In this document: positions 7,070 through 60,779 of the stretch, in pieces
Layout of the letters: each line of letters starts with the position of its first letter
Position numbering within the stretch: the first letter of the stretch is position 1
Assembly: GCA_903902705.1 (NCBI GenBank)
Contig: CAIUVX010000139.1
Span: forward strand, 1 to 64,000
Source: an uncultured Methylococcales bacterium
GTDB taxonomy: Bacteria; Pseudomonadota; Gammaproteobacteria; Methylococcales; Methylomonadaceae
Length of the DNA stretch: 64,000 nt
Direction of reading: 5' to 3'
Translations under genes and position numbers: made by a program
The notes under the pieces: generated by a model
Told to the model about the DNA's origin: nothing
The model's input: the letters and a program-made list of their open reading frames with translations, nothing else
The model's database searches: none

Positions 7070-7640
7070 CAACGCGCTCGAACAAGTGATACATCACTTC
7101 ACCTGCGGTTTTTTGTTTTAACAATCGCCAGTTTTCGGGTATCTCTTGAAGTTGAAAAACACCTTGTGTGTCAACATTCGTCCTTTCAGTTTCAACATAA
7201 ATTTTCGCATAAGAAGCTAACCAGCCTTTATCTTCTAACCATTGGCAGGTTTGCGCCGCTAAGTTTAGGTTAAACGGCGGGTCAATAAACACGATGTCAA
7301 AGGCTTGTGCATCACTCGCTAAATAACGAAACACATCTGATTGGACGATTTTTACTTGTTCCGCACCTAAACTAAGCGCGTTGGTTTTTAGACTTCGACA
7401 GGCGATAGGATTATTTTCAACTTGAATCACCGATTTCGCACCCCGCGAGGCGGCTTCAAAGCTTAACGCGCCACTGCCTGCGTATAAATCCAGACAGTGG
7501 CTACCAAGTATGTCGTATTGCAACCAGTTAAATAAAGTCTCGCGTACTCTGGCAGGTGTTGGTCGTAAACCGTCTGCATCTTCAAAACTAATCTTACGAC
7601 TACGCCAGTTGCCACCAATGATGTTCAGTTTATTTTGCAC
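7050..7640 (-). CDS. rsmD: 16S rRNA (guanine966-N2)-methyltransferase
   Basis: 196 residues. Class I SAM-dependent fold: LNIIGGNWRSRKISF, LRPTPARVRETLFNWL, motif I CLDLYAGSGALSFEAASRGA, then VQVENNPIACRSLKTN and the N6/N2-methylase motif FIDPPFNLN near residue 120. It methylates G966 of 16S rRNA in the assembling 30S subunit. The start overlaps the end of the upstream M16 gene by 11 bases, so translation is probably coupled. The last residues (about VAKANTQ) lie in a dispersed repeat, suggesting the original end was altered. Confidence 0.93.
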   Translation of the reverse strand: MQNKLNIIGGNWRSRKISFEDADGLRPTPARVRETLFNWLQYDILGSHCLDLYAGSGALSFEAASRGAKSVIQVENNPIACRSLKTNALSLGAEQVKIVQSDVFRYLASDAQAFDIVFIDPPFNLNLAAQTCQWLEDKGWLASYAKIYVETERTNVDTQGVFQLQEIPENWRLLKQKTAGEVMYHLFERVAKANTQ

Positions 7641-8943
7641 TTTTTTCTGCCGTTTTACCGACAGTAACCGTTTGTAATAGATTTAAATCAACACGGCGTT
7701 TAAAGGCATCGGTAATGGAAGCAGCCGTAAGCTCTTCAACTTTTTGCTGAAAAGTATCCAAATAATCCAATGGCAACTCATAAAAACCTATCATACCAAC
7801 GTAGTTTGCCAATTTTTTATTAGTATCAAAACGGGTGGCAAAACCACCGATAATATTTTTCTTGGCTGCACTTAACTCAGCTTCACTAGGACCTTGATTG
7901 ACATAATCACTCAGGGTTTTGTTTAGCACTTCTAAGGCTTGTTGGGTTTGATCGTTGCGTGTTTGTAGTGACACAGTAAAAGGCCCTTGTTTTAACATCG
8001 GTGCAAAGCCACTGCTGGCACTGTATGCCAAGCCGCGTTTTTCCCGTACTTCATCAAACAATTTAGACACCAGACCGCTACCACCAAGAATATGATTACC
8101 AACATAGAGATTAAAATAATCAGGGTCTTTGCGATAAGTCCCCGTCAAACCAACTAAAACATGGGTTTGTGATGATGGAAATTCAATGTGTTGTTGGCTA
8201 GATTTTGTCAGTGCGGCAACATCGGGTATGGCTTCTGGTTTTTTTCCAGTAGGTAAGTCTTTTAATAAGGTGATTGCGGTTTGATCGGCTTGCTCTTTAG
8301 ATAAATCACCGACAATAACGACAGTGGCATTTGCTGCTACATAGTAGTTTTTATAAAAATTGCGTAAGTCAGCAACTTTAAGCGCAGTAACGGTTTTGAT
8401 GTCGCCTGCATCTTGATGAGCGTAAGGGTGTGTACCATATAACGCTTTACTAAAGGCAATACCAGCGACAGCAGCAGGCAATTCTTGTTGCTGTTTTAAA
8501 CCTGCTAACGTTCTATTTTTTTCCCGTTTAAAATCGGCTTCATTAAACCGTGGCTGAGTCAAAATAGTCTGTACCGTTTCCAGTGACTTATCAAATAGAG
8601 CTTTATCGGTCAGTGTGCGTAATGTCAGAGTCGCCATATCCGCTGAGGTAGACGCGCCAAACACTGCACCAACACTTTCAAATCGTTGGGCAATATCATC
8701 GGCATTCCATTTACCCGCACCTGTATCAAGCACGCCTGCCGTAAGAGCGGCGACACCAAATTGTTGTCCGTCCCTAGCACTGCCCGCATCAAAAATGATT
8801 GCAATATCTGCCATCGGTAAACCTTCGGTACGCACATAAAACACCCGACTACCTTGTGGTGTTTGCCAGTTATCAATTTTTGCCGCCGCAAAACTGATAG
8901 AACTGCACAGTAATAACAGTAAACCTACTAAACGAATAGTCAT
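7630..8943 (-). CDS. M16 family peptidase-like protein, inactive partner subunit
   Basis: 437 residues with a signal peptide (MTIRLVGLLLLLCSSISFAAA). Two M16 halves are visible. Where active members have HxxEH this one has FGVAALTAGVLDTG, so the zinc site is missing. The C-terminal half keeps DEVREKRGLAYSASSGF, the R/Y motif typical of the non-catalytic chain. Such proteins pair with an active M16 subunit, as in the mitochondrial processing peptidase. Its ATG overlaps the stop of the active partner directly upstream, supporting a heterodimer. Periplasmic by its signal peptide. Confidence 0.9.
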   Translation of the reverse strand: MTIRLVGLLLLLCSSISFAAAKIDNWQTPQGSRVFYVRTEGLPMADIAIIFDAGSARDGQQFGVAALTAGVLDTGAGKWNADDIAQRFESVGAVFGASTSADMATLTLRTLTDKALFDKSLETVQTILTQPRFNEADFKREKNRTLAGLKQQQELPAAVAGIAFSKALYGTHPYAHQDAGDIKTVTALKVADLRNFYKNYYVAANATVVIVGDLSKEQADQTAITLLKDLPTGKKPEAIPDVAALTKSSQQHIEFPSSQTHVLVGLTGTYRKDPDYFNLYVGNHILGGSGLVSKLFDEVREKRGLAYSASSGFAPMLKQGPFTVSLQTRNDQTQQALEVLNKTLSDYVNQGPSEAELSAAKKNIIGGFATRFDTNKKLANYVGMIGFYELPLDYLDTFQQKVEELTAASITDAFKRRVDLNLLQTVTVGKTAEKSAK

Positions 8944-10334
8944 TATTTTACTCCCTTGGCGTTGGTGGTTGATTGTTGAGTCGCTTGCGGTTCAAGGTTA
9001 GTGGTTGATTGTTGAATCGCTTGTGGTTCAAGATAGCCAACGGTTAAATGGTCTTCGAGCAAATATTTTTTTGCCACATTCTGCACTTGTTCGGCAGTGA
9101 CTTGATTGATTTTATCGACATATTCATCGGCTTTTTGCCACGGTAAGCCTACGGATTCTAATGCACCTAACTGCATGGCTTGATAAAAATTGGAGTCTTT
9201 TTCATACACTGCACTGGCTAATACTTGCGCCTTAATACGCTGTAGCTCTTCTGTACTGATTAAGGTTTGCTGTAACACGTTCACTTCCGCTTTTAAGGCT
9301 TTTTCTAAATCGGGTAGCGTTTTACCTTCGACAGGTGTCGCTTCTAATTCAAATAAACTGTCCAATCTGGATGTTAAGCTATAACTGGCACTGGCGGAGA
9401 CTGCTAGTTGCTTGCCGCGTACTAAATTAGCCGATAATCGCGCACTATTACCCCCATCTAACACACCCGCTAATACTTCCAGCGCGTAAGCTTCACTTTC
9501 ATCAGTGGTCGTTTTTAAACTGGGTACTTTATAGCCTAGCACTAGCACAGGCAATTTAGCAGGTGCTTTTACAGTCAGTCTCCGTGCGCCTAATTGTTCA
9601 ATTTCAGATAGCGGTTTTAAGGGTTTAATCTCGCTAGTTTTTAGCTCAGCAAACTGTTTTTCCGCTAAATCAAATACTGCTTGAGTTTGCACATCACCCA
9701 CCACCACCAAGATGGCATTATTTGGCGCGTACCAACGTGAATACCACGCTTGCAAATCCTCTACTTGATAATTGGCAATATCCGATGGCCAACCAATAAT
9801 AGGATTTTTATAAGGGCTATTGGTATAAGCAACTGCTGAAAAATATTCGCCTAGTTTGGCTTGTGGATTATCATCAGTACGCATACGACGTTCTTCCGTC
9901 ACCACTTCCAGTTCTTTTTTTAATTCTTCGGGCAGAAGATGCAAATATCGCATTCTATCAGCCTCCAATTCAAAACTAACTTCTAACTTGGATGCTGCCA
10001 TAGTTTGAAAATAAGCAGTATAGTCCTGTGCGGTAAAAGCATTTTCATCGCCACCATTTTCAGCAATAATTTTAGAAAATTCCCCCGCTGGATATTTGTC
10101 CGTACCTTTGAACATCATGTGTTCCAGCATGTGGGAAATCCCTGTGATACCGTTAGGCTCATAACTAGAACCCACTTTGTACCAGACTTGAGACACTACC
10201 ACAGGTGAGCGATGATCTTCTTTAACCAACACTTTTAAGCCATTTTTTAAAATGTGTTCAGAAACTTTGCTTGCTGTGGCGTGTGCTACCACAGGCAGAC
10301 ACAGCAACACAGTACATAATAATCGTTTGTTCAT
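8943..10334 (-). CDS. M16 family zinc peptidase, active subunit
   Basis: 463 residues with a signal peptide ending near VVAHA. The inverted zinc motif HMLEH is at residues 68-72, and the distal acidic ligand lies in EVVTEERRMR near residue 148. The mid-region has the usual WYSRWYAPNNAILVVVGDV. It degrades short peptides in the periplasm, probably with the inactive homologue that starts at its stop codon (TAATG overlap). An odd point: the C-terminal tail carries a 12-residue in-frame tandem duplication, LEPQAIQQSTTN then LEPQATQQSTTN (DNA about 8962-9033), likely recent. First gene of an M16-M16-rsmD operon. Confidence 0.93.
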   Translation of the reverse strand: MNKRLLCTVLLCLPVVAHATASKVSEHILKNGLKVLVKEDHRSPVVVSQVWYKVGSSYEPNGITGISHMLEHMMFKGTDKYPAGEFSKIIAENGGDENAFTAQDYTAYFQTMAASKLEVSFELEADRMRYLHLLPEELKKELEVVTEERRMRTDDNPQAKLGEYFSAVAYTNSPYKNPIIGWPSDIANYQVEDLQAWYSRWYAPNNAILVVVGDVQTQAVFDLAEKQFAELKTSEIKPLKPLSEIEQLGARRLTVKAPAKLPVLVLGYKVPSLKTTTDESEAYALEVLAGVLDGGNSARLSANLVRGKQLAVSASASYSLTSRLDSLFELEATPVEGKTLPDLEKALKAEVNVLQQTLISTEELQRIKAQVLASAVYEKDSNFYQAMQLGALESVGLPWQKADEYVDKINQVTAEQVQNVAKKYLLEDHLTVGYLEPQAIQQSTTNLEPQATQQSTTNAKGVK

Positions 10335-28913: not shown

Positions 28914-30272
28914 ATGGAAACCTACCTGCCCCTGATTCTAACTACGCTGACTGAATGGTTGCAACTAACCATCGAGCATCCTTTATACGCCGCCGCGTTA
29001 GTCATCGGTGTGTGGTTACTAACCGCACTGCTGTATAGCATCAGAATTTCTGGGCTAACTAAAAATAATGTTGCCATTGAACAGGCGAAAATTGCCGCAG
29101 AAGCTAATCTCACTACTGCACAACAACAACTCCAGCAAGCACAAGACCAGTTAACCACAGTTACTGAACAACAAACGCAAAGCCAACGTTTGGCGGACAC
29201 TGAAAAACAACGTGCTTCAAGCGCGGAACAGCAACTGATTAAACGTAATCAACAAATTGGTGTGATTATTCAAAATCTAGCCAGTAGTTTTGATAGTGGA
29301 GAACGTCCATTACCTGTCACCGAAGACCTTAACGCTGACGATTTGTGGCAACAGCACGATAAAATTATTCATCAATTGATTGAACGTTTGCATACAGAGC
29401 AACTTGCCAAAACAGAATTACAAAAATTTTATCAAGCAGAAAAAGATAAAGTTTCTGCAACAGACGCACAATTATCAAGCTTGCACGCTCACTTGGATAG
29501 CCAAAATAGCTTGATTTCAACGTTGCAACAACAATTGACCAACGCACTACAACATCAAACCAATCTAGCGCAGATTACGCCAGTTGAAACGGGTAACATT
29601 GAGCAAACAACGCCCACTTCCAATAACCTAGCATCGGTTGATGAACCAGCTGAAAAACTCAAAAGCTTATTTAAAAAGCCTGTTCAGCAACAGCCTTCAA
29701 TTACGCCAGTACAAAACATCGCGCCTCCTATCGTAACTCAGACGGCAACGGTTTTAGTGGACGATAAAAAAATAGCAGCCGAGCCTGAGCCAGTGGTAGC
29801 ACCAAAACCTGCACCTGTTGAAGAGATTGCTGAAAAAACCAGTAATGTCGCTGCATTAAAAGGTTTGTACCAAAAATTCACCACAGCAAAACCAGACGCT
29901 GTTAAACCTGAATCAGTGGTAGCATCAAAACCTGCACCCGTTGAAGAAGTTGCTGAAAAAACCAGTAATGTTGCTGCATTAAAAGGCTTGTACCAAAAAT
30001 TTAGCACGACTAAAGCAGAACAAGTAGAAATCGTTCCTGAGCCTAAACCACAAGTAATAGAGCCTGTTGTAAAAATAATTGAGGAAACCGCCGCTCCAGT
30101 TGAACAAATAAAACCAGCGGCACCTCGTAGCTTTACGCCGACTAAACGTCCTGAAGTCAAACCACTCACTATTGAACCGTCTAGTCGTATCGATGAAGCC
30201 GCCGATCTAATTACTGAAAAAGTCGATAAACTGAAAAACTTATACGGTAAATTCTTCTCCAAAAAAGATTAA
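28914..30272 (+). CDS. Membrane-anchored coiled-coil protein with repeated LKxLYxKF motifs
   Basis: 452 residues; family not recognised. One transmembrane segment near the N-terminus (AAALVIGVWLLTALLYSI, about 26-43) is followed by a Gln/Ala-rich coiled coil to about residue 220, a low-complexity Pro/Glu/Val region and a Lys-rich end. A roughly 40-residue module is repeated twice (about 290-370; KPAPVEE(I/V)AEKTSNVAALKG). A short motif occurs four times: EKLKSLFKKP, ALKGLYQKF twice and KLKNLYGKFF at the C-terminus. It resembles a scaffold with docking motifs. GAGGACACTTT precedes the ATG. A hairpin after the stop separates it from cysD. Confidence 0.75.
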   Translation: METYLPLILTTLTEWLQLTIEHPLYAAALVIGVWLLTALLYSIRISGLTKNNVAIEQAKIAAEANLTTAQQQLQQAQDQLTTVTEQQTQSQRLADTEKQRASSAEQQLIKRNQQIGVIIQNLASSFDSGERPLPVTEDLNADDLWQQHDKIIHQLIERLHTEQLAKTELQKFYQAEKDKVSATDAQLSSLHAHLDSQNSLISTLQQQLTNALQHQTNLAQITPVETGNIEQTTPTSNNLASVDEPAEKLKSLFKKPVQQQPSITPVQNIAPPIVTQTATVLVDDKKIAAEPEPVVAPKPAPVEEIAEKTSNVAALKGLYQKFTTAKPDAVKPESVVASKPAPVEEVAEKTSNVAALKGLYQKFSTTKAEQVEIVPEPKPQVIEPVVKIIEETAAPVEQIKPAAPRSFTPTKRPEVKPLTIEPSSRIDEAADLITEKVDKLKNLYGKFFSKKD

Positions 30273-30467: not shown

Positions 30468-31376
30468 ATGACCGATTATAAATTAACCCACCTGAAAGAA
30501 CTCGAAGCGGAAAGCATCCACATCATTCGTGAAGTTGCCGCTGAATTTGAGCGTCCTGTGATGCTGTACTCCGTCGGTAAAGATTCTGCCGTCATGTTAC
30601 ATCTGACCATGAAAGCGTTTTACCCCGCAAAACCGCCCTTCCCGATGATGCACGTTGACACCACTTGGAAATTCAAAGAAATGATTGAATTTCGCGATTA
30701 TATGGTAAAAAAATTGGGGCTAGAACTCATCATCCACGTCAATCAAGACGGCGTAGATCAAGGCATCGGACCATTCACCCACGGCAGTAAAAAACACACT
30801 GACGTGATGAAAACCGACGGCTTAAAACAAGCCCTAGACAAACACCAATTTGATGCCGCTTTCGGTGGCGCAAGACGTGATGAAGAAAAATCCCGCGCAA
30901 AAGAGCGTGTATATTCTTTCCGTGATAAAAACCACCGCTGGGATCCAAAAAATCAACGCCCAGAATTGTGGAATATCTACAACGGCAAAATCGACAAAGG
31001 CGAAAGTATCCGTGTATTCCCCTTATCCAACTGGACAGAATTGGACATCTGGCAATACATCCACTTAGAAAGTATTCCCATCGTGCCGCTCTATTTTGCC
31101 AAAGAACGCCCTGTGGTTGAGCGTGATGGAATGTTAATCATGGTCGATGATGAGCGTATGCCCATCGGTGAAAACGAAAAAGTGGAAATGAAAAAAGTAC
31201 GTTTTCGTACGTTAGGCTGTTATCCGCTCACAGGCGCAGTTGAATCCGAAGCCACCACGCTACCCGAAATCATTCAAGAAATGCTGTTGACCACTACTTC
31301 TGAAAGACAAGGACGCTTAATCGACCACGACCAAGCTGGATCTATGGAACAGAAGAAACGCGAAGGGTATTTTTAG
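30468..31376 (+). CDS. cysD: Sulfate adenylyltransferase subunit 2
   Basis: 302 residues, normal length. [21 protein letters not shown], the PP-loop [28 protein letters not shown] and [20 protein letters not shown] are all typical. With CysN it makes adenosine 5'-phosphosulfate from sulfate and ATP for cysteine synthesis. In most gammaproteobacteria cysN follows directly; here 2.3 kb with three genes comes between. A leader of nearly 200 bases precedes it, with TAGAAT near 30407 as a possible -10. Confidence 0.97.
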
Positions 31377-31406: not shown

Positions 31407-31868
31407 ATGGCGGCAACACGAAGTTTATATGACAGTGATTTTTACGCATGGGCATTACACAACGCTGCTTTGCTAAAAGCCAAACGCTTTGATGAGTTGG
31501 ATTTCGATCATTTGGTTGAGGAAATAGAAAGCATGGGCAAAAGTGAAGGGCGTGAATTAAATAATCGCTTAAAAGAATTATTGATGCACTTGCTAAAATG
31601 GCAATATCAATCCGAGCGTCAAAGCCGCAGTTGGCTTAACTCTATTAATAAACAACGGATTGGTATTGACGAAGTATTGGATGAAAATCCCAGTTTGAAA
31701 TACGAGCTTGAAGACCGTTTTCAGCAAAGTTATAAATATGCCCGCCGTTATGTTGCTACTGAAACGCGATTGCCACTAAGCACTTTTCCTGAACAATGTC
31801 CTTATTCTTTGCAAGAAGCATTGGATGCTGATTTTTTGCCCGATACAGAAAATTTAAGTCATGATTAA
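31407..31868 (+). CDS. DUF29 family protein
   Basis: 153 residues. LYDSDFYAWALHNAALLKAK, FDHLVEEIESMGKSEGRELNNRL and LLMHLLKWQYQ are the DUF29 hallmark. The function is unknown; such genes are common, often multi-copy and mobile in cyanobacteria and gammaproteobacteria. A strong AAAGGAG precedes the ATG, 30 bases after cysD. It overlaps the start of the ATPase gene by 8 bases. Whether it is a functional part of the ATPase module or separate cargo cannot be decided here. Confidence 0.88.
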   Translation: MAATRSLYDSDFYAWALHNAALLKAKRFDELDFDHLVEEIESMGKSEGRELNNRLKELLMHLLKWQYQSERQSRSWLNSINKQRIGIDEVLDENPSLKYELEDRFQQSYKYARRYVATETRLPLSTFPEQCPYSLQEALDADFLPDTENLSHD

Positions 31869-33009
31869 CCGCGCTGAACTCAAAAATTTTGGGCCAATAA
31901 AAGAATTGGATTGGCAGAATTTAGGCAAAATTAACCTTATCATTGGCAATAACGGTTGTGGTAAATCATTTTTGCTTAAAGCTTTATATAGCGCGGTTCG
32001 TACTTTGGAAGACTACAGACGTGGTGATAATCCAGAGAGTGCTACTGATATTTTGACAAAAAATCTCCGTTGGACATTTCAACCTGATGAAATCGGTGAT
32101 TTGGTAAAAGACCAAGAGATTGTGGTTAAAGAAGAATACATAGAACCAAACGTAGAGTTTTTGGATAAGGAAGTATTATTATCGTTCAGTATGTTTTTTA
32201 ATCAACAAAACTTTAGCTATGAATTTGCTAATGATTTTAGTAGACCTAATATTTCAAAAAACCAAGTAACCCCACGAACAGATAATTCCATTTTTTTACC
32301 TGCCAAAGAAGTCTTATCACTGCACCATATTATTTTAACAACTGTATTACGGGATAGATTATTTGGTTTTGATAATACCTATTTTGATTTAGCGATAGCG
32401 TTGCAAACACCTCCATCAGATATTCCTGTGTATTTCGGTTTTGCAGAGGATGTAGATTCAAAAGGATTTTGTCAAGCACCATTTTACAATCAGGAATCGC
32501 TAATACGAGGACACGGTTCTAACGATTTCAATCAGGTACGAAATCTTTTAGAAGGTATGATTGGCGGTAGAATCGAGTTTAATGAAGTTAGAAAACGTTG
32601 GTATTTCAGACAAGGAGAGCAACGTTTTCCTATGGGAGTAACTGCCGAAGGCATTAAAAAAATTGCCATATTGGATACATTGCTAGGTAATGGCTATTTA
32701 AATGAAAATTCTATTATTTTTATTGATGAGCCAGAATCAGCCTTGCATCCAAAAGCTATTGCTGACCTGCTTGATATTATTGCCGTACTCGCTAATCACG
32801 GCATTCAATTTTTTCTAGCTAGCCATTCCTATTTTGTCATCAAAAAATTATTTTTAATTGCCCAAGAACAACAAATGTCCATTCCCGTGCTTTCTTATCA
32901 AAATGATGAATGGGTACAATCTGATTTAAAAAATGATTTACCAGATAATCCAATCATTGATGAATCTATTAAATTGTATGAACAACAATTAGACCTATCT
33001 GACTGTTAA
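31861..33009 (+). CDS. AAA (ABC-like) ATPase, candidate defence-module sensor
   Basis: 382 residues. RAELKNFGPIKELDW leads to Walker A GNNGCGKS at residues 29-36. A signature-like VTAEGIKKIA lies near 260, Walker B IIFIDEPESALHP near 286 and the H-loop ASHS near 320. This is the compact SMC/RecF-type fold of AAA_15/AAA_21 proteins found in OLD, Septu PtuA, PARIS AriA and Lhr-like defence ATPases. The insert between the motifs is short and lacks a Toprim domain, so the effector must be separate. The next gene begins at the very next base after the stop, implying strict coupling. AT-rich compared with cysD and cysN. Confidence 0.85.
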   Translation: MINRAELKNFGPIKELDWQNLGKINLIIGNNGCGKSFLLKALYSAVRTLEDYRRGDNPESATDILTKNLRWTFQPDEIGDLVKDQEIVVKEEYIEPNVEFLDKEVLLSFSMFFNQQNFSYEFANDFSRPNISKNQVTPRTDNSIFLPAKEVLSLHHIILTTVLRDRLFGFDNTYFDLAIALQTPPSDIPVYFGFAEDVDSKGFCQAPFYNQESLIRGHGSNDFNQVRNLLEGMIGGRIEFNEVRKRWYFRQGEQRFPMGVTAEGIKKIAILDTLLGNGYLNENSIIFIDEPESALHPKAIADLLDIIAVLANHGIQFFLASHSYFVIKKLFLIAQEQQMSIPVLSYQNDEWVQSDLKNDLPDNPIIDESIKLYEQQLDLSDC

Positions 33010-33651
33010 ATGCGAAAAACAATTGATGACCTTGGTCAAATTACAATTGAAGAATCAGGTATGCGTTTTGGTTCATATTCAAGTGATGAAATTTTTGATA
33101 TTGAAGAAAGCAGTATACACAAGGGTATACGGCAAGAAGGTGTTCAAACCGCTGAATTTTTATTATTTAAAATCAAAAAAAATAAACCAATAGTGTTGAT
33201 TATTGAAGCAAAACGAACTGCTCCAAAAGTTCTAAATCAAACACGAATTGATAAATTCGTAAAAACTGAGAAAGAAAAAATAAAATCAGAAACAAATATA
33301 ACCTTTTTCTTTGATACGCTTGAAAAACGATTAAAACACGATGAATTTTTCAATGACATAAAAGGAAAATTCAGAGACACACTTGCACTATTTATTGCTA
33401 TGCGTTTGAATCGACATAACGAAAAAAGTGACGCATTACCCCCAAGATTTACACAAATTGACTTGTCAGAAATATGTTTTGAATTTGTCCTCGTTATCAA
33501 AGAGCAAGACCCAAGCTGGCGACAAGATTTACAAAACAAAGTTGAAAAGGAACTAAACCCAATACTTAAAATATGGAACTTGTCACCAACCTCTGTTCAA
33601 GTTATTGATGAAGCAAGAGCTAAAAAACGCGGCTTAATTGCGAATAACTGA
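33010..33651 (+). CDS. PD-(D/E)xK nuclease-like protein, candidate effector
   Basis: 213 residues; no family recognised. Residues 42-70 read as a nuclease core strand pair: QTAEFLLFKI, then PIVLIIEAKRTAP, with E49, E66 and K68 fitting the acid...ExK pattern (Glu where Asp is more usual). Two Lys-rich helices follow, then a C-terminal domain with FCFEFVLVIKEQ-like strands (SEICFEFVLVIKEQDPSWR). It has no signal peptide. It starts immediately after the ATPase stop with no gap and is very AT-rich, which suggests acquisition together with that gene. A nuclease effector controlled by the ATPase is the working idea; it could also be a non-catalytic accessory. Confidence 0.65.
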   Translation: MRKTIDDLGQITIEESGMRFGSYSSDEIFDIEESSIHKGIRQEGVQTAEFLLFKIKKNKPIVLIIEAKRTAPKVLNQTRIDKFVKTEKEKIKSETNITFFFDTLEKRLKHDEFFNDIKGKFRDTLALFIAMRLNRHNEKSDALPPRFTQIDLSEICFEFVLVIKEQDPSWRQDLQNKVEKELNPILKIWNLSPTSVQVIDEARAKKRGLIANN

Positions 33652-33691
33652 GTTTTGCAACTTTAAAATATTTTTTAGGAAATAAAAAACC

Positions 33692-53060: not shown

Positions 53061-54302
53061 TTAAAAATTAATTTTTTGTAATCGATAATCTTGCTGTAGT
53101 ACTTGCCATGACACATAAATCGCTTGTCCATCGCTGATTAAAAACGGTGTATCAACGCCTTTAGCGGCTTCGGCAATGACTTCTGGTTTACTCCATGTGT
53201 TGCCAGCATCCGTTGATTTTATTAACTGCAAAACATTTTTTTTGCCATCAAATTCTTCCCAAACAATAGCGATATTTTTCCCCAACGTTTTTACATGGGG
53301 ATGCGTTGCGCCCGCGCCACCAAACGCCATAGGCTCAGAAAAATGTTTGCCGCCGTCATTGGAATGCGCATAAAACAAGCCTTTTTTGACATCAGCATTA
53401 CTAAACCACACTTCGTGATATACGTCTGTGTCAGAAATTGCTAAACCAGGCCCGTGATGTGGGCAAGCATCGATTTTCCAATTTTCTTGTCCGACACGTT
53501 GCAACTCAGCGGGGGTATTCCAATCGGTAAATTTAACGAGGGCGTGATCGCGGATACCGCCATCAAAAATATGTCTCCAAGTAATGACGGGGGTGTTGTC
53601 TTTAGCAATAGCGGTTTGTAGGCGGCAACATTGGCAGACATGAGCGGCGATACGTTTATTTGGATAAAAAGACTTGCCACCATCGTTTGACCAAGTGTAA
53701 TACAGCGACGATCCTTCAAATTTCTGTCCTGCTTTTTTGGCAGCAACGGTGTCACGCGCATCTAGCCACGCAATAAAAATTTCACCATTTTGTCCAATTG
53801 CCATTGAGTCAAAAGAATGTCCAATCACATCCAAATCATCATTGACGGTGATGGGCGCGGAAAACGATTTACCGCCATCGGTGGAACGACTAAAACGAAT
53901 GTAGCCTGCATGGTGTTCACCCAGTGATAACGCCCAAGTGATATAAATATTACCTTTCGCATCCAATTTTATTTTCGGACGATTTTCGCCTTTAGCGGTC
54001 ACTTTTTCTGCAATCGCATTGACTATAACGGGGTTTCTGAAATGTTGCCCTTTATCAGCGGATGACTGCACATAAATATGCTCGTTATTTGCCCAAGTAA
54101 TCCATAACACACCATCGGGGGCAAATTCCGCAGCCACGGTATTGGAACATTGACTCGATGGTTTAGCGCACACAGGAGCTTTTTCGCCATGTTGACTATG
54201 CTCGTTGTGTTGCGGGGTAGCAGTTTGTTCTACCGTGCTGTCAGTTGCGCAACCTGTGATTGCCAAGAATGCTGAAAATAAAAAATAGCTAGGAGATTTC
54301 AT
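53061..54302 (-). CDS. Asp-box (BNR, sialidase-like fold) lipoprotein 1
   Basis: 413 residues from the ATG at 54302, chosen because MKSPSYFLFSAFLAITGC is a lipoprotein signal with its lipobox; 22 upstream codons would disrupt it. A His/Cys-rich lead (HNEHSQHGEKAPVC) precedes a six-bladed-type propeller with at least five Asp-boxes (STDGGKSF, SNDGGKSF, SNDGGKHF, STDAGNTW, SADKGQHF). Two unusual motifs are VCQCCRLQTA near 224 and ACPHHGP near 281. The sialidase catalytic Arg triad is not evident, so hydrolase activity is doubtful; the Cys/His motifs hint at metal or haem. Paralogue of the next gene. Confidence 0.8.
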   Translation of the reverse strand: MKSPSYFLFSAFLAITGCATDSTVEQTATPQHNEHSQHGEKAPVCAKPSSQCSNTVAAEFAPDGVLWITWANNEHIYVQSSADKGQHFRNPVIVNAIAEKVTAKGENRPKIKLDAKGNIYITWALSLGEHHAGYIRFSRSTDGGKSFSAPITVNDDLDVIGHSFDSMAIGQNGEIFIAWLDARDTVAAKKAGQKFEGSSLYYTWSNDGGKSFYPNKRIAAHVCQCCRLQTAIAKDNTPVITWRHIFDGGIRDHALVKFTDWNTPAELQRVGQENWKIDACPHHGPGLAISDTDVYHEVWFSNADVKKGLFYAHSNDGGKHFSEPMAFGGAGATHPHVKTLGKNIAIVWEEFDGKKNVLQLIKSTDAGNTWSKPEVIAEAAKGVDTPFLISDGQAIYVSWQVLQQDYRLQKINF

Positions 54303-54392
54303 GAGTATGCCAAGTAAAAGTCTAAAAATATGAACGAAAATTGGGAGGTGGGTTAAATTTGGAGTCAAAAAGCTTTAGCTTTTTACGATTTG

Positions 54393-54412
54393 CCAATAGC
54401 TAAAGCTATTGG
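54393..54412. repeat. CCAATAGC/GCTATTGG hairpin
   Basis: CCAATAGCT and AGCTATTGG with a 2-base loop, between the two Asp-box lipoprotein genes; the flanks GAGTC and GATTCC resemble the hairpin at 35331-35362. It may terminate the upstream gene. Confidence 0.6.
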
Positions 54413-54517
54413 ATTCCTGATAGTTTGTTAAAAAATAGATTTAACCCACTACTGAAAATTGTAACACTAAAAATAAGTTGGGGGTTCGCAGAGCTTCACC
54501 CCCAATCTACGCCTGAA

Positions 54518-55813
54518 CTATTTAATAGCGATGAGTTGATAGTCTTTTTGTGCGACTTGCCAAGATAGATAAATACGCTGCCCATCACTGACTAGAAATG
54601 GCTCATCCGCCATTTCTGTGGTTTCTGCAAGCACTTCAGGTGCTGACCATGTTTTGCCTTCATCGGTGGATTTCATGGTTAACGCACGATTAGTTTTACC
54701 GTCAAATGTTTGCCAAGTAACCAGCACTTGTTTATTCATCGCTAGCACTGATGGATGACTCGCGCCTTCTTTAGCAAAGTTAATGGATTCGGAAAAGCTT
54801 TTACCTGCATCGGTGGAATAGCCGTAGAACAAGCCTTGTTTAGATTCCGCACCACTAAACCATACCGCGTGATAAATACCCGATTCGGCAATAGATAAAG
54901 CGGGGCCATGATGTGGGCAAGCGTCTATTTTCCAGTCTTCATAACTCAAGCGTTGCACCGTGTCAGGTGTTTGCCAATCTTTAAATTTAACCAGTGCGTG
55001 ATCGCGAATACCGCCGTCAAAAATATGTCGCCACACCACCACAGGCGTGTTATCAGGGGCAATCGCGGTATCTAACCGACAACATTCGCAGACGTGATCG
55101 GTAATGGATTTGTTAGTTGCAAAATGTTTGCCACCATCGGTGGAGCTGCTGTAATACAACGATAGCCCTTTAACCTCTTTACCTGCTTTTTTTGCCGCTT
55201 CGGTGTCACGCGCATCTAGCCAAGCAACAAAAATTTCGCCATTTTTACCGACCGCTAAACTATCAAAACGATGACGAATCACTTCCAAATCATCATTGAC
55301 GGTCACAGGGGTAGTGAATGATTTTCCGCCATCAGTTGAACGACTAAAACGCACATAAGTGCTACGCTTTTTATCCAGCGTAAGTACCCACGTTAGGTAG
55401 ATATTGCCTTTGGCATCAACTTTTATTTTTGGGCGACTTTCGTTTTCAGCCGCGACTTTTTCAGGCTTGGTATTGACTAATACGGGGGCTGTGAAGCTAT
55501 TGCCTTTATCCGTCGATGACTGCACATAAATAGAGTCGTTGTTTGTCCACACTGCCCACAGCGTACCTTTGTTATCAAAAGTGGCGGTGACGGTCTCGGC
55601 ACACAGACTTAACGGTGGGGCTTTGGCATCGGCACACACGCCTTTCTTTTCATGTTTATGAGACATTTTGGCTTTGTCAGCCGATTTGCTTTTGTCGGCA
55701 GGTTTACTAATGGTTTCTTTCGAGGCGGGTGTTTTTGCAGTGCTGTCGTTGGTAGCACACCCTGAAACCATGAAACCAATAGCCATTATCAGGTAAAAAA
55801 GAGGAGCTTTCAT
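54518..55813 (-). CDS. Asp-box (BNR, sialidase-like fold) lipoprotein 2
   Basis: 431 residues. Lipoprotein signal MKAPLFYLIMAIGFMVSGC with Cys19, then a Lys/Ser-rich linker with KMSHKHEKKGVC. Asp-boxes include STDKGNSF, STDGGKSF, STDGGKHF, STDAGKSF and STDEGKTW. It has the same CECCRLDTA (near 242) and ACPHHGP (near 299) motifs as lipoprotein 1 and clear end-to-end similarity to it. It follows the TonB-dependent receptor at 55915 on the same strand, about 100 bases away, so the products probably act together at the outer membrane. Confidence 0.82.
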   Translation of the reverse strand: MKAPLFYLIMAIGFMVSGCATNDSTAKTPASKETISKPADKSKSADKAKMSHKHEKKGVCADAKAPPLSLCAETVTATFDNKGTLWAVWTNNDSIYVQSSTDKGNSFTAPVLVNTKPEKVAAENESRPKIKVDAKGNIYLTWVLTLDKKRSTYVRFSRSTDGGKSFTTPVTVNDDLEVIRHRFDSLAVGKNGEIFVAWLDARDTEAAKKAGKEVKGLSLYYSSSTDGGKHFATNKSITDHVCECCRLDTAIAPDNTPVVVWRHIFDGGIRDHALVKFKDWQTPDTVQRLSYEDWKIDACPHHGPALSIAESGIYHAVWFSGAESKQGLFYGYSTDAGKSFSESINFAKEGASHPSVLAMNKQVLVTWQTFDGKTNRALTMKSTDEGKTWSAPEVLAETTEMADEPFLVSDGQRIYLSWQVAQKDYQLIAIK

Positions 55814-55840
55814 GATGAATCCAAGAGAAAAAGCTTGGTA

Positions 55841-55896
55841 GATTGGGTTAGCTGTAAGCCATGAGTTTGTCGAATGGACGAACAGCGTAACCCAAC
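55841..55896. repeat. TTGGGTTA-type repeat
   Basis: GATTGGGTTAGCTG at 55841 and CAGCGTAACCCAACAA ending near 55896 form inverted arms around GTTTGTCGAATGGACGAAC. It fits the family at 26861 and 50363, and lies between receptor and lipoprotein genes. Confidence 0.55.
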
Positions 55897-55914
55897 AATT
55901 TAGTTAACGGTTGC

Positions 55915-58335
55915 TTAGTAGTTGAATTTCAACTCAGCAAAGTAAGTACGCATGGGGAATGGATGGAAAATCCAGTATTCATTGTTGTTGACGTTATCAA
56001 TACCACCCGCGACCGCTAATTGTTTGGTGATTTGGTATTTTGTGCGTAAATCAACCACGAAGAATGCGGTGTTTCCCGTGTAAGTGCCGCCATTGGTGTC
56101 TGCGTTATTCAGCGCACTAAATTGTTTGCTGCTGTAGCGCATACTGACGGAGTTAGTCCATTTATCGGTTGGACGATAGGCAACAGTGGCACTGGCTCGC
56201 CATTCAGGAACACGCGGTTGACGACTACCTACGGTAGGTAAGTTAGCATAAGGATTGGCAGCGTTGAACGGTTGGCGAGCAGCGGCGGCATCGGCATCAC
56301 TATTTTTAGTGATGCGCGAATCTGCCCATGTTGCATTACCTGATAAATCAAGTCCTGCTATACCGACATCGGATTTTTCACCCGCAAACTCGACACCATA
56401 AGTTTCAATTTGGCGAACGTTTTGCGGTGAGTTAATCACTGCGCCTGTTGAGGTGATTCCAGGTTGTGAATAAATGGCGTTATTGATACGCTCTTGGAAT
56501 AAGCTCAAGCGTAATTTACCTTTATCCAACAAGTATTCGGTTGCCAGTTCAGACGATAGGGCTTCTTCGGGTTTTAAATTAGGATTGCCGTTGGTGATGG
56601 TGGTTTGACCACCTACGGTGACTTGGTTGGTTTGGAACAGTTCAGTGGCGGTCGCAAAACGATAGGCTTGGGCAACAGATGCACCAATTTTTACTCGATC
56701 CATTGGCTCCCACGTCAGTTTAAACTTGGGTGAAAAATGGGTAACGTTGTTATTGGCTTGATTAACGGTTTGCAGTCTGCCATTCACGGTTGCACTGTTG
56801 ACACCATCGTAAGCGTGCCAGCTTTCTAAACGCCCACCTAAGGTTAGATTCCAGTTTTTATAAAAGTCCCACGAATCTTGCGCCCAATAGGCTTCGGTTT
56901 GGGTTTTGCCTTTTGAAAGGCTAGTAGGAACACCCGTGCCATTCGTGCCTGTCCAGTTATTCGCAACGGTATAAATGGGGTTGTTTAGCTCATACAAATC
57001 ATGATGAAAACCAAAACTGACTTCATGTTGTCCCATAGCAGTGGGTCGCCAAATACCTTTCGCATCCGCAGTATGCCAACCTGTGCCTGTTAAGCTGGTA
57101 ATCGTACCCGCGCCGTTTTGTGAGGATTGCAGCGGAGTTCCTGTGGATGCACGGGCGATGTCTTTGCCATAGTCAACGACGCTACCCGATAAATCCCAAT
57201 CGAAAATACCACCTGTATTGGATTTGATGTTCATGCCGTGTGACCAGTGCATTTGTTCGGCACGCGATTCACCAAAGGCATTAGGCGCAAGAGTGTAACG
57301 CATTCCGTTGATATTAACGTTGCCATTAGTAACAACTGCGCCTGTTCTTGCGTTGGTTAAAAAACTGTCAGAGCTGATGTGATTATCATTTTGCCATAAG
57401 CCCAAGGTATACGCCGCTTTGATAGTCGGGGTGATGTCATAAGCCAGCTTCCATTTAAAAGTATCTTGGACAGTGTGATTGAAATTACCCGCACCTTGTA
57501 CTTGGGCAGATTGACCAAAAGGATTTAAGTTAGCGACTGCACCATTAACAGCGACATCGGCAGCGGTCGCTTTCGTAGTTGAAGTCAGGGGATTTACATA
57601 GCTAATCGGTTGACTGTGTGCATCAAGATGGCTGACATCAAAACGCCATGAAAAATCTTTCATGCGGTCGCCTAAATTGAAGGCATATTCCTGAGTGTCA
57701 AAGGTTTGGTTATGTCCATAATTGCCGTAGGTCTGCCAACTGCTTTTTATATCAGCCCCCGCTTCAAATTTTTCGGGCATTTTGGTAGTCATTTCGATAA
57801 CACCGCCAATAGAGTTACCTGAGTATGCCGCAGAAAATGGACCATACATCACATCAATCCGTTCAATTTCATTGGGCGATACCATGTTCCAGCGTGGCGA
57901 ACCTGTGTTGCCGTTGTTGTTGCCCAGCAAGGAAGACAGCATAATGCCATCGGCGTAAATCAAGCCACGCGCACTTAAACCTGTACCTGAGGTACGCCAC
58001 GCCACAGGCGCGTTAGTATCACCCGCATAACGCTTACGCACGGTGATACTGGGCATATATTTAATAATATCCTCTGTACTCATCGCGTTGATGGTGTTGT
58101 CTATTTTTTCGCTGGTGATACTTTCGGTAGTCGCAGGCAGTTTGTATCGCTCTTTAGAGGTCTCTGCGGCAATGGGTGTACGTTGATCTTCAACTGTCAT
58201 TTCTGGCATGACTTTAGTGTTGTCAGTCTTCGCAGGGGCTTTAGTTTCAGCAATAGCAAAGGGGGAGCTTAACAGTAATGCACACAGTAATACACGACGT
58301 GGATTGAGTGGAAACGGGGGATTAATTTGATTCAT
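55915..58335 (-). CDS. TonB-dependent outer membrane receptor 2
   Basis: 806 residues. Signal peptide ending near FAIA; TonB-box-like PEMTVEDQ near residue 45; plug domain with STEDIIKYMPSITVRKRY, RGLIYADGIMLSS, NEIERIDVMYGPFSAAYSGNSIGGVI; then a 22-strand barrel ending in Tyr (FAELKFNY). The plug resembles that of siderophore, metal-chelate and copper receptors (OprC-like), but the ligand cannot be told. 71 bases downstream of a paralogous receptor and upstream of the two Asp-box lipoprotein genes. Confidence 0.9.
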   Translation of the reverse strand: MNQINPPFPLNPRRVLLCALLLSSPFAIAETKAPAKTDNTKVMPEMTVEDQRTPIAAETSKERYKLPATTESITSEKIDNTINAMSTEDIIKYMPSITVRKRYAGDTNAPVAWRTSGTGLSARGLIYADGIMLSSLLGNNNGNTGSPRWNMVSPNEIERIDVMYGPFSAAYSGNSIGGVIEMTTKMPEKFEAGADIKSSWQTYGNYGHNQTFDTQEYAFNLGDRMKDFSWRFDVSHLDAHSQPISYVNPLTSTTKATAADVAVNGAVANLNPFGQSAQVQGAGNFNHTVQDTFKWKLAYDITPTIKAAYTLGLWQNDNHISSDSFLTNARTGAVVTNGNVNINGMRYTLAPNAFGESRAEQMHWSHGMNIKSNTGGIFDWDLSGSVVDYGKDIARASTGTPLQSSQNGAGTITSLTGTGWHTADAKGIWRPTAMGQHEVSFGFHHDLYELNNPIYTVANNWTGTNGTGVPTSLSKGKTQTEAYWAQDSWDFYKNWNLTLGGRLESWHAYDGVNSATVNGRLQTVNQANNNVTHFSPKFKLTWEPMDRVKIGASVAQAYRFATATELFQTNQVTVGGQTTITNGNPNLKPEEALSSELATEYLLDKGKLRLSLFQERINNAIYSQPGITSTGAVINSPQNVRQIETYGVEFAGEKSDVGIAGLDLSGNATWADSRITKNSDADAAAARQPFNAANPYANLPTVGSRQPRVPEWRASATVAYRPTDKWTNSVSMRYSSKQFSALNNADTNGGTYTGNTAFFVVDLRTKYQITKQLAVAGGIDNVNNNEYWIFHPFPMRTYFAELKFNY

Positions 58336-58406
58336 TTTTCTCTCGGTTATTATTATAAGTAGGGTGGCATTGCTGCATACCCTACTGGGTTTAGTAAATT
58401 ATGTTA

Positions 58407-60779
58407 TTAATATTTAAGCGACATACTGACATAGTAAGAACGTTGCGACAGTGGATTATTTTCATAACGATCTTGATCCAGAATGTTATCAACCCCTGCT
58501 GAGAGGGTGCTTTTCAGTTTTGGGTGTATGGGCAATTGATAAGAGGTTTTGAAATCTACAAAAGTGTATTCATCCGAACCACTGAACACATTTTTTGCCG
58601 CATAATCGTTGTTTTCAAAGCGTTGGAATATATCACTACGATAACGCACACCTACCGAAGAATCCCATACTGGCAAGATATGGTAGGTTAATGAGGCATT
58701 GGTTTGCAGTTTAGGAATACGCGCCCATTCATTACCGACCAATGCGGTGTTGTTAGGGTTTTTGGTAATTTGCTTATTCATGAACGTACCATTCGCCATT
58801 AAATCAATCGGCAATCCAAACAGACTATTTTGGTTGAAAATCAATTCTGTACCAATGGTTTCCGTTTGCCCTATCGATTGAAAGGTACTGATGTTCTGAC
58901 CACCGAATGTGTTTGAAATTGAGATTATTTCATCGTTAACGAGGTTATAAAAGAAATTAGCCTGAATATAACCGCGTGGAATATTGTATTGCGTCAAAAA
59001 GTTATGAAAATAACCGTTTTCTGGACCTAAAGACGGATCAGGAATATTCTGCGACAGAAAGGTATTGCTGGCGGCAAATAATTCTTCGGCAACAGGGAAA
59101 CGATAGGCTTTAGAAAATGAATAGCGGAATGTCCATTTATCAGGGGTAAATTCCAGTGACGCTTTCGGTGAAATGCGTGTAGCTTCACGGTCTGCAAATT
59201 CACTCTGAATTTTAGGTGTTGCTGCTACGCGGTTGTGACCACCAATGGATTGCCAATGATCCAATCTAACGCCCGCCATGATGCTCCAGTCTGGCAGAAA
59301 CCGCCAATCCAACTGTGAAAACACGCTATTAATTTGAGTTTGACCACCCGCATCACTGCGCTGAGAATCTTTAGTCGCTTGGATATATTTTTTGGTATCG
59401 TAGACCTTAATGTTATTGCTACCACGAACAAATTGATAGCCGCCCATGAATGATAAATCATCACGCCCCAAAAATTTATCGGTTGCTAATTTGCCATCGT
59501 AAGTCGCCCACCATGTTTGGGTGTCCGTCACTAAACCTTGTCCCGTATTGGCGCGATTAGGGTCTTGAGGTGCGTAGGTTGAAGCAACCGCGAGATTTTT
59601 AAAAGGATCGTAGAAACTGGCAGTGGTATCAATATTCCAGTTATCAGAAATCTTACCTTTTAAACTTAAGCCATAATTGAGTGCTTGACGTTGCAGAATA
59701 TTGGCACCAAAGGCATTATTTGGTAGCCTGAATTGCTGTCCATTTTGATTGACTAGACCACCCGTCGCGTTTGCACTAACGGTACTGCTATAAACAGGCT
59801 TCCCCGCTGCATCCTTTATTAACACCAGCGGCTCATTATTGCGATTGTCGCGTTCTTCATAAGCAATGGTAAAACGGGCTTGTAACTCTTCCGTTAAGTC
59901 ATAAGCCATTTTGAGCTTGAATAAATCGGTAACAACGTGCTGTGTGCCGTTATCGCCGAATATAATGGCAGGCGTGGGGAATCCGCCTGCGATAGCTTGT
60001 GGTTGCTCGGTCAATTGCCCACCAGTGACTTTAGTTCCCGTCGCCGCTTTAGTGAGTGCCGCTGTATCAATCGGATCCATCGGCTGTCCATCATTTTCCA
60101 GATGGTTATAAAAACCGTAAACGCTGAATTTATTGATACGGTCACCACCCGAAAGAAAAGTTCTAAAACCGCTGAGCAATTCATTACGCCCACCTCTGTG
60201 CATATCCTGAAACATACCCGTGGCGTTCATTTCCGCTTCAAACTTTTCAGGCATTTTGGAGTTTAGGTTAACAACACCCCCCATAGAACCACCGCCATAT
60301 TGCGCAGAAAAAGGACCGTAAAGCACTTCGGCAGTGCCAATTTCACTGGGAGCCATCATAGACCATCTCGGAACACCGTTAAAACTGACATTCACAGGAT
60401 TATGCAAAGGCATACCGTCACCGAAGACCATGTTCTGAGCGGTCTGAAGGATATTAGTACCGCGTATGCCCATCATGGCATTTTGATCGCCGATATAACG
60501 TTTACGCATGTGTAAGCTGGGTGCATATCTAATAACGTCTTCCGAAGTTGTGTAATTCACTCTTTCTTCAAATTGTTCCTTATCAATTGTATAAGTAGGC
60601 GTTGCTTTAGTCGTGTCTGGAAAAGGGGTACTAGACGTTTTCTCTGATACCGTCATTTCAGGCATTTCTTTAACTGCCGCAGGTGATTTATTGACTACGA
60701 TAGCTTTAGACTGTGCAGGCTCTGCGGCGATAGCACCGCTCAAATAGCTCACACCTAATAATAAGACAACTTTTTTCAT
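58407..60779 (-). CDS. TonB-dependent outer membrane receptor 1
   Basis: 790 residues. Signal peptide ending near GAIAAEP; TonB-box-like PEMTVSEK; plug with TSEDVIRYAPSLHMRKRYIGDQ, RGTNILQTAQNMVFGDGMPL, SEIGTAEVLYGPFSAQYGGGSMGGVVNL; barrel ending YYVSMSLKY. The plug shares RKRYxGD, YGPFSAxYxGxSxGGV and KMPEKFEA with receptor 2, so the two arose by duplication. First gene of a four-gene co-directional set. AAGGAG lies just before the ATG; the promoter must lie in the AT-rich 293 bases upstream, where I see no Fur-box-like palindrome. Confidence 0.9.
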   Translation of the reverse strand: MKKVVLLLGVSYLSGAIAAEPAQSKAIVVNKSPAAVKEMPEMTVSEKTSSTPFPDTTKATPTYTIDKEQFEERVNYTTSEDVIRYAPSLHMRKRYIGDQNAMMGIRGTNILQTAQNMVFGDGMPLHNPVNVSFNGVPRWSMMAPSEIGTAEVLYGPFSAQYGGGSMGGVVNLNSKMPEKFEAEMNATGMFQDMHRGGRNELLSGFRTFLSGGDRINKFSVYGFYNHLENDGQPMDPIDTAALTKAATGTKVTGGQLTEQPQAIAGGFPTPAIIFGDNGTQHVVTDLFKLKMAYDLTEELQARFTIAYEERDNRNNEPLVLIKDAAGKPVYSSTVSANATGGLVNQNGQQFRLPNNAFGANILQRQALNYGLSLKGKISDNWNIDTTASFYDPFKNLAVASTYAPQDPNRANTGQGLVTDTQTWWATYDGKLATDKFLGRDDLSFMGGYQFVRGSNNIKVYDTKKYIQATKDSQRSDAGGQTQINSVFSQLDWRFLPDWSIMAGVRLDHWQSIGGHNRVAATPKIQSEFADREATRISPKASLEFTPDKWTFRYSFSKAYRFPVAEELFAASNTFLSQNIPDPSLGPENGYFHNFLTQYNIPRGYIQANFFYNLVNDEIISISNTFGGQNISTFQSIGQTETIGTELIFNQNSLFGLPIDLMANGTFMNKQITKNPNNTALVGNEWARIPKLQTNASLTYHILPVWDSSVGVRYRSDIFQRFENNDYAAKNVFSGSDEYTFVDFKTSYQLPIHPKLKSTLSAGVDNILDQDRYENNPLSQRSYYVSMSLKY

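What the first reader, a model, noticed from the sequence alone, without database searches (positions are those of the whole stretch)
31407..33651. ATPase plus nuclease-like gene pair inserted between cysD and cysN: candidate phage-defence system
cysD and cysN normally lie side by side. Here 2.3 kb with DUF29, an SMC/RecF-type ATPase (Walker A GNNGCGKS, Walker B with DEPE, H-loop ASHS) and a 213-residue protein with an E...ExK nuclease-like core (E49, E66, K68) separates them. The genes overlap by 8 bases or abut with no gap, so they are translated together. The layout (compact ATPase plus separate nuclease) is that of Septu, PARIS and similar two-gene systems, but I do not recognise the second protein as any known effector. 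The insert is visibly more AT-rich than the cys genes. The motifs are seen; the defence role is inferred.
Basis: partly seen in the sequence, partly recalled or inferred. Interest (0 to 1): 0.72.

Follow-up and report, generated by a model that had tools for sequence, protein, structure and literature searches.

The report
Defence gene pair inside sulfur operon
Between two sulfur-metabolism genes of a methane-eating bacterium sits an ATPase-plus-nuclease gene pair already listed as a candidate anti-virus system, and in many relatives the same gap holds other immune-type gene cassettes that appear to be exchanged there.

Summary
In detail: DUF29, a RecF/SMC-type ATPase (A) and a 213-aa protein (B) lie between cysD and cysN, overlapping or abutting, AT-rich. 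But A and B match a named candidate system, PADLOC HEC-02 (E 2.3e-137 and 8.1e-50), so the pair is a new member of a known kind. B keeps E49/E66/K68 in 77/78/76 of 78 relatives. Its predicted fold (pLDDT 92) matches restriction-type nucleases best, weakly (Z up to 6.1). B follows A in 83 of 85 loci examined; 10 of 80 named-genome loci lie at cysDN, all from methanotroph records.

The newer part is the site. In the methanotroph family, 62 of 121 measured cysD-cysN gaps hold at least 300 bp, against 4 of 63 for one control pair. Contents include HEC-02 (14), HEC-01 (8), GmrSD, HicAB, Fic/Doc, IVP and Excalibur genes; 99 of 99 ORFs of 100 aa or more run with cysDN. In one relative A is 98% identical but B only 44%; that B is 75% identical to one in another genus at the same site. 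Effectors thus seem to be swapped under a kept sensor. Defence activity and mechanism are inferred; nothing was tested at the bench.

The parts
30468..31376 (+). cysD, sulfate adenylyltransferase subunit 2; left border of the slot
   Evidence: PF01507 1.4e-59
31407..31868 (+). DUF29 gene, accessory passenger; present in only some HEC-02 slots
   Evidence: PF01724 4.6e-52; with HEC-02 in 2 of 14 HEC-02 slots and alone in one other slot; 4 copies in this genome
31861..33009 (+). HEC-02A, RecF/SMC/OLD-type ATPase, inferred sensor and regulator
   Evidence: PDLC04214 2.3e-137; AAA_21 1.1e-22
31945..31968 (+). Walker A GNNGCGKS, residues 29-36 of HEC-02A
   Evidence: sequence, alignment
33010..33651 (+). 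HEC-02B, inferred PD-(D/E)xK nuclease effector
   Evidence: PDLC04221 8.1e-50; model pLDDT 92.1, pTM 0.87; fold rows
33154..33213 (+). inferred catalytic stretch of HEC-02B, E49 to E66-A-K68
   Evidence: 77, 78 and 76 of 78 relatives
32965..33668 (+). segment that differs from genome G006 while both sides stay about 90-100% identical: the exchanged B cassette (borders approximate)
   Evidence: windowed DNA identity
33692..35320 (+). cysN, sulfate adenylyltransferase subunit 1 (GTPase); right border of the slot
   Evidence: GTP_EFTU 4.3e-45

Best explanation
The insert is a HEC-02 two-gene candidate anti-phage cassette (A ATPase, B nuclease) with a DUF29 passenger, lodged in a recurrent cassette slot inside the cysD-cysN operon of methanotrophs. 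Inferred working: the genes are read from the cysD transcript; A, a RecF/SMC-type ATPase, binds and restrains B and senses an infection-linked DNA state or phage component; ATP-dependent change in A then frees or positions B, which cuts DNA with its E49/E66/K68 site, of the phage, the host or both. Shown by computation: identity, pairing, conserved core, fold resemblance, recurrence of the slot, orientation and B exchange. Inferred: co-transcription, A-B complex, trigger, nuclease activity, defence.
For: Direct profile match of both genes to HEC-02. B follows A in 83 of 85 loci, 57 of 82 measurable starts with a 4-base overlap. E49/E66/K68 in 77/78/76 of 78. Model of B at pLDDT 92.1; the ten best rows of VIA-align are all restriction, nicking or defence nucleases (FokI, N.BspD6I, BsmI, EcoO109I, Can2). 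Immediate neighbours outside the slot include type I specificity subunits (4 of 65 upstream) and type I restriction enzymes (4 of 64 downstream). Slot: 62 of 121 gaps of 300 bp or more against 4 of 63 for a control pair; 19 against 3 in the same 38 genomes. 99 of 99 insert ORFs of 100 aa or more share the cysDN direction. In the window region the promoter-like matches are fewer than in shuffles (6 against a mean of 15) and no terminator-like site lies in the insert on +.
Against: No activity is shown here or, as far as the held papers go, elsewhere for HEC-02. Fold matches are weak: no Foldseek match reached 0.001 and Z stayed at or below 6.5, in a range the tool calls common; with the first, shallower model Rag GTPases and other non-nucleases were among the ten best rows. 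The neighbour survey had no random-gene control. One control gene pair only, measured between alignment ends. Few phage or plasmid copies: 1 plasmid record, 0 phage records, 0 viral contigs. Some relatives have damaged B genes (L040, L071, L090, L103).
Confidence: 0.72

Rival explanations
1. The pair serves sulfur assimilation or its regulation and sits at cysDN for that reason.
For: 14 of 69 slot inserts in the family hold HEC-02, and slot-resident A proteins form one clade, as expected of a long-kept neighbour.
Against: 70 of 80 named-genome loci show no cysD-cysN frame around the pair in the DNA held; 52 of 121 cysDN gaps in the family are under 100 bp; unrelated immune-type genes occupy the same gap.
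Confidence: 0.05
2. A DNA-repair or recombination pair in the manner of Rad50-Mre11 or RecF, not a defence system.
For: A is of the RecF/SMC class (SMC_N 6.7e-07); some weak fold rows are SbcCD/Rad50 chains.
Against: Patchy presence: 3 of 61 relatives and 4 of 369 genomes of the class carry a B match; neighbours include restriction genes; B varies strongly while A is kept.
Confidence: 0.1
3. A selfish or toxin-antitoxin-like cassette that persists by addiction, defence being secondary or absent.
For: The slot also carries HicAB and DUF2281-Fic/Doc pairs; all inserts are small and turn over.
Against: B is followed or preceded by no small antitoxin-like partner; the direct match is to a defence candidate; B genes are found damaged beside an intact A, which would also fit a toxin.
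Confidence: 0.13

Closest known systems
HEC-02 (PADLOC Hma-embedded candidate 02)
   Same: Both genes, their order and their sizes; PDLC04214 for A and PDLC04221 for B
   Different: Lodged in a housekeeping operon rather than in a defence locus, with DUF29 in front; B is longer than the models (213 against 171 positions) by an insertion around residues 76-110
HEC-01 (PADLOC; AAA_21 ATPase plus DUF4276)
   Same: Same design and the same slot in 8 of 69 inserts
   Different: Different partner protein (DUF4276, PF14103) and a different ATPase family; not present in the window's insert
Septu (PtuA ATPase, PtuB HNH nuclease) and PARIS (AriA ATPase, AriB Toprim)
   Same: Two-gene ATPase plus effector nuclease design; A is a distant relative
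   Different: A scores far lower on PtuA and AriA than on HEC-02A; B matches neither PtuB nor AriB models. The HNH and Toprim labels of the partners are recalled
Hachiman (HamA nuclease, HamB helicase)
   Same: HamA is among the best fold matches of B (Foldseek rank 1 and 3, E 0.026 and 0.057); a sensor motor restrains an effector nuclease (abstract of PMC12278908)
   Different: The sensor is a helicase, not a RecF/SMC-type ATPase; VIA Z is only 3.9-4.7

Membership tests
HEC-02 | ATPase gene matches HEC-02A models | tested here: met
   PDLC04214 2.3e-137 over residues 1-379
HEC-02 | Partner gene matches HEC-02B models | tested here: met
   PDLC04221 8.1e-50, PDLC04225 1.6e-34, PDLC04230 1.3e-20
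HEC-02 | A and B adjacent, same strand, A first | tested here: met
   31861-33009 then 33010-33651; also in 83 of 85 loci
HEC-02 | Embedded in Hma or another defence locus | tested here: not met
   In the window the pair lies between cysD and cysN; relatives elsewhere have type I restriction genes as neighbours in 4 of 65 and 4 of 64 cases. This is how the candidate was named, not part of its gene content
HEC-02 | Anti-phage activity | not testable with these tools
   needs plating assays; naming preprint 10.1101/2024.01.29.577857 seen only in a reference list and not held
PD-(D/E)xK nucleases | Acidic residue plus (D/E)xK conserved | tested here: met
   E49 77/78, E66 78/78, K68 76/78 (two R)
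PD-(D/E)xK nucleases | Shared core fold | tested here: inconclusive
   Ten best VIA rows are restriction, nicking or defence nucleases, Z 4.7-6.1; no Foldseek E under 0.001
PD-(D/E)xK nucleases | Metal-dependent DNA cleavage | not testable with these tools
   needs purified protein
Septu | PtuB-type HNH partner | tested here: not met
   B matches only HEC-02 models up to E 1 in PADLOC and nothing in Pfam up to E 1
PARIS | AriB partner | tested here: not met
   as above

The most novel reading that the evidence does not exclude
The cysD-cysN junction of methanotrophs is a promoterless, operon-embedded immune slot: compact cassettes enter in the direction of the operon, are expressed by read-through, can be stacked (HEC-01 with HEC-02 in G484; HEC-02 with a DUF2281-Fic/Doc cassette that carries a broken 5' end of cysN in L037, L038 and G559), and are exchanged between genera through the conserved flanks. 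Within HEC-02 the ATPase A stays while the nuclease B is replaced, so the resident sensor is re-armed with new effectors.
Probability: 0.55. Interest if true: 0.66.

Novelty: new member of a known kind. Interest (0 to 1): 0.5.

Why it matters
The gene pair itself adds a member, and about 80 named relatives, to a candidate system that still lacks a described mechanism. It gives concrete residues to mutate. The site matters more: a housekeeping operon that takes up small immune cassettes in reading direction would show how defence genes can be acquired without promoters, integrases or large islands, and the A-kept, B-swapped pair in two close relatives is a natural experiment on which protein recognises and which one acts.

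Tried and rejected
Two scans of viral contigs, one with B and one with the A alignment, found pattern matches but no relative; A has no match in phage records and one in plasmids at 1e-30. B has no PDB relative by sequence up to E 10. NCBIfam and PHROGs gave nothing useful for B. DUF29 as a part of the system was rejected: it accompanies HEC-02 in 2 of 14 slots, and in the 82 loci searched it was found near the pair in L031 (the same genome as G006) and, 40% identical and on the other strand, in L078. A single deep gain with purely vertical descent was rejected for B: slot B genes do not form one clade, whereas slot A genes do, with one non-slot member, L035, inside (several inner nodes weakly supported). 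Folding of an IVP insert as single-stranded DNA gave a z-score of -2.18 and is not used. A test of whether the B exchange is an assembly artefact was not possible without reads; both genomes are draft assemblies and G006 is a metagenome assembly (L031 title).

Papers: 9 searches. Seen only as listings, except passages of PMC8565338 and PMC12988326 and the abstract and outline of PMC12278908. No listed title describes a cysD-cysN cassette slot (7 papers with at least 5 of 6 terms; 9 papers); this does not prove that none exists.

Full report
What is there. The five genes, their borders, the 8-base overlap, the abutting start and the AT-richness are as described. The ATPase has Walker A, DEPE and ASHS motifs; the 213-aa protein has E49, E66 and K68.

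Identity. Against PADLOC the ATPase is HEC-02A (PDLC04214, 2.3e-137) and the 213-aa protein HEC-02B (PDLC04221, 8.1e-50). HEC means Hma-embedded candidate; a 2026 paper states that several HECs including HEC-06 showed antiviral activity in assays and cites a preprint (passages of PMC12988326). Whether HEC-02 was tested I could not see: the preprint is not held and no held paper has both HEC-02 and PADLOC.

Relatives. A scan of one genome per species with the A alignment gave 143 relatives, of which the best 80 were kept: proteobacteria, Verrucomicrobia, cyanobacteria, Bacteroidia, archaea and others by record title. Of 85 loci examined (these 80, the window, and L002, L003, L026, L027; L003 and L031 are one genome, and L026 and L056 have identical proteins), 83 have a B match beside A; L068 ends at A and in L090 most of B is deleted. 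Of 82 measurable starts 57 overlap A by 4 bases. In 78 loci with B of 140 aa or more, E49 is kept in 77, E66 in 78, K68 in 76, E15 in 74, E32 in 76. Four B genes look damaged: L040 and L103 by broken frame, L071 and L090 by truncation.

Fold of B. With 5 sequences the model has pLDDT 85.2, with 57 it has 92.1 and pTM 0.87. Foldseek gave no match under 0.001; FokI and HamA lead at 0.03-0.06. That these enzymes are PD-(D/E)xK nucleases, and that FokI uses D450, D467 and K469 at the same spacing as E49, E66 and K68, is recalled. I take the PD-(D/E)xK reading as likely but not proven.

Neighbours elsewhere. In 10 of the 80 loci the pair lies between cysD and cysN, all in methanotroph records or records whose cysD is about 90% or more identical to the window's. 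In the other 70 no cysD and no close cysN was seen in the DNA held; some contigs are short. Of 65 upstream neighbours 4 match type I specificity subunits, single ones match PglX, type IIG, type IV and HEC-01A models; of 64 downstream neighbours 4 match type I restriction enzymes, 2 PDC-S05 and 2 PDC-S23 (only the 25 commonest families are printed; no random-gene control was run; whether the specificity and restriction hits come from the same loci is not shown).

The slot. In the window's genus all eight genomes have cysN; the cysD-cysN interval holds DUF29+HEC-02 in G000 and G006, HEC-02 alone in G003, a PD-DExK gene plus HEC-01 in G001, Excalibur genes plus a shortened HEC-01A and HEC-01B in G005, an IVP gene in G002 and an Excalibur gene in G007; in G004 the two genes are on different contigs. 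In a family-wide survey of 201 genomes, the printed lists hold 150 cysD and 150 cysN places; 121 genomes have both on one contig and strand. The gap is under 100 bp in 52, 100-299 in 7, 300-799 in 29, 800 or more in 33. The control pair (two M16 peptidase genes, window 7630-10334) has 300 bp or more in 4 of 63; in the 38 genomes with both pairs it is 19 against 3. The control gaps were measured between alignment ends, which can only lengthen them.

All 69 inserts of 100 bp or more were fetched. By sequence match they hold HEC-02 A+B in 14, HEC-01 A+B in 8 (one of these, G484, has both), IVP in 19, Excalibur in 14, DUF29 in 3, the 205-aa PD-DExK gene in 3. HEC-01 labels beyond G001 and G005 rest on similarity to G001's proteins. 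Others: G509 GmrSD type IV restriction, G015 a PtuA-like ATPase with a PIN protein, G498 HicA and HicB, G541 DUF2281 with Fic/Doc (similar pairs seen by eye in G498, G559 and G472), G032 a gene just under the Mrr_cat cut-off with a 179-aa partner without a family (a similar pair in G022 and G484). Of the 99 ORFs of 100 aa or more all run with cysDN.

Exchange. Between the window and G006 the DNA is about 86-100% identical per 50-base bin from DUF29 to about 32965, 46-70% through B, and 86-98% again from about 33668. A is 97.6% and B 44.8% identical; among the 25 pairs with the most similar A, the next lowest B value is 64.5%. G006 B is 75% identical to the B of G470, another genus, whose A is 63% identical to that of G006. 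Slot A genes form one clade with support 0.98 that also holds non-slot L035; slot B genes do not: those of L032, G554 and G484 group with non-slot B genes. This fits exchange of B by recombination within the slot.

Scars. A broken cysN 5' end of about 38-43 codons lies inside the slot of L037, L038, G559 and G576 (69 insert interiors and two named loci searched; no cysD fragment in the 69 interiors). In L037, L038 and G559 it stands between HEC-02 and a DUF2281-Fic/Doc cassette with a shared junction, and so probably reflects one cassette; G576 has another junction. At least these cassettes arrived together with a cysN 5' end.

How it likely works. A senses and restrains, B cuts; see Best explanation. 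The comparison with Hachiman, where the motor HamB holds back the nuclease HamA until DNA damage is met, rests on that paper's abstract. Expression by read-through is inferred from orientation, tight spacing, and the lack of promoter- or terminator-like excess.

Verdict. The pair is ordinary in kind and already named; the recurrent slot and the effector exchange are, within my searches, undescribed.

Noticed in passing
cysD-cysN inserts of 19 genomes with an IVP gene, e.g. L160 (G033), L165 (G532): IVP (four-helix, 23S rRNA-intervening-type) cassettes carry inverted AGGTTCAAGGT-like ends: both ends within 2 mismatches in 10 of 19, right end in 12 of 19; 0 of 21 HEC inserts (chance about 1.4% per right end). 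Six of 13 Excalibur inserts keep only the right end, as if they had replaced an IVP cassette.
   Followed up: partly
L037:2716-2829, L038:5410-5529, inserts of G559 and G576: Broken cysN 5' ends inside the slot, in three cases between HEC-02 and a DUF2281-Fic/Doc cassette.
   Followed up: partly
L147 (G484:C239:2781-7422): A stacked slot: an Mrr-like gene and its partner, then HEC-01 A+B, then HEC-02 A+B, all in one direction.
   Followed up: partly
L118:72-608 (G032), L121 (G022), L147 (G484): A 179-186-aa protein beginning YFVVEG(N/K)NDE, with no Pfam or PADLOC match in the copy scanned, always after the Mrr-like gene; it looks Toprim-like to the eye and may be an undescribed defence pair.
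   Followed up: no
PADLOC models PDLC04145 and PDLC04146: The labels HEC-02A and HEC-02B look interchanged for these two models: PDLC04146 (B label) matches the ATPase, PDLC04145 (A label) weakly matches the B protein. PDLC04144 shows the same for HEC-01.
   Followed up: no
G444, G030, G451, G014 between the two M16 peptidase genes: Gaps of 641-1018 bp in the control gene pair; contents not looked at.
   Followed up: no
window 28914-30272: The gene just upstream of cysD is about 92% identical in G006 but only 43-48% in five other members of the genus or family at the same place (G001, G002, G003, G007 among them), a fast-changing repeat-rich protein.
   Followed up: no
window 53061-60779: Two similar lipoprotein-like genes (53061-54368, 54518-55813) beside two similar TonB-receptor-like genes (55915-58335, 58407-60779), apparent duplications.
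   Followed up: no
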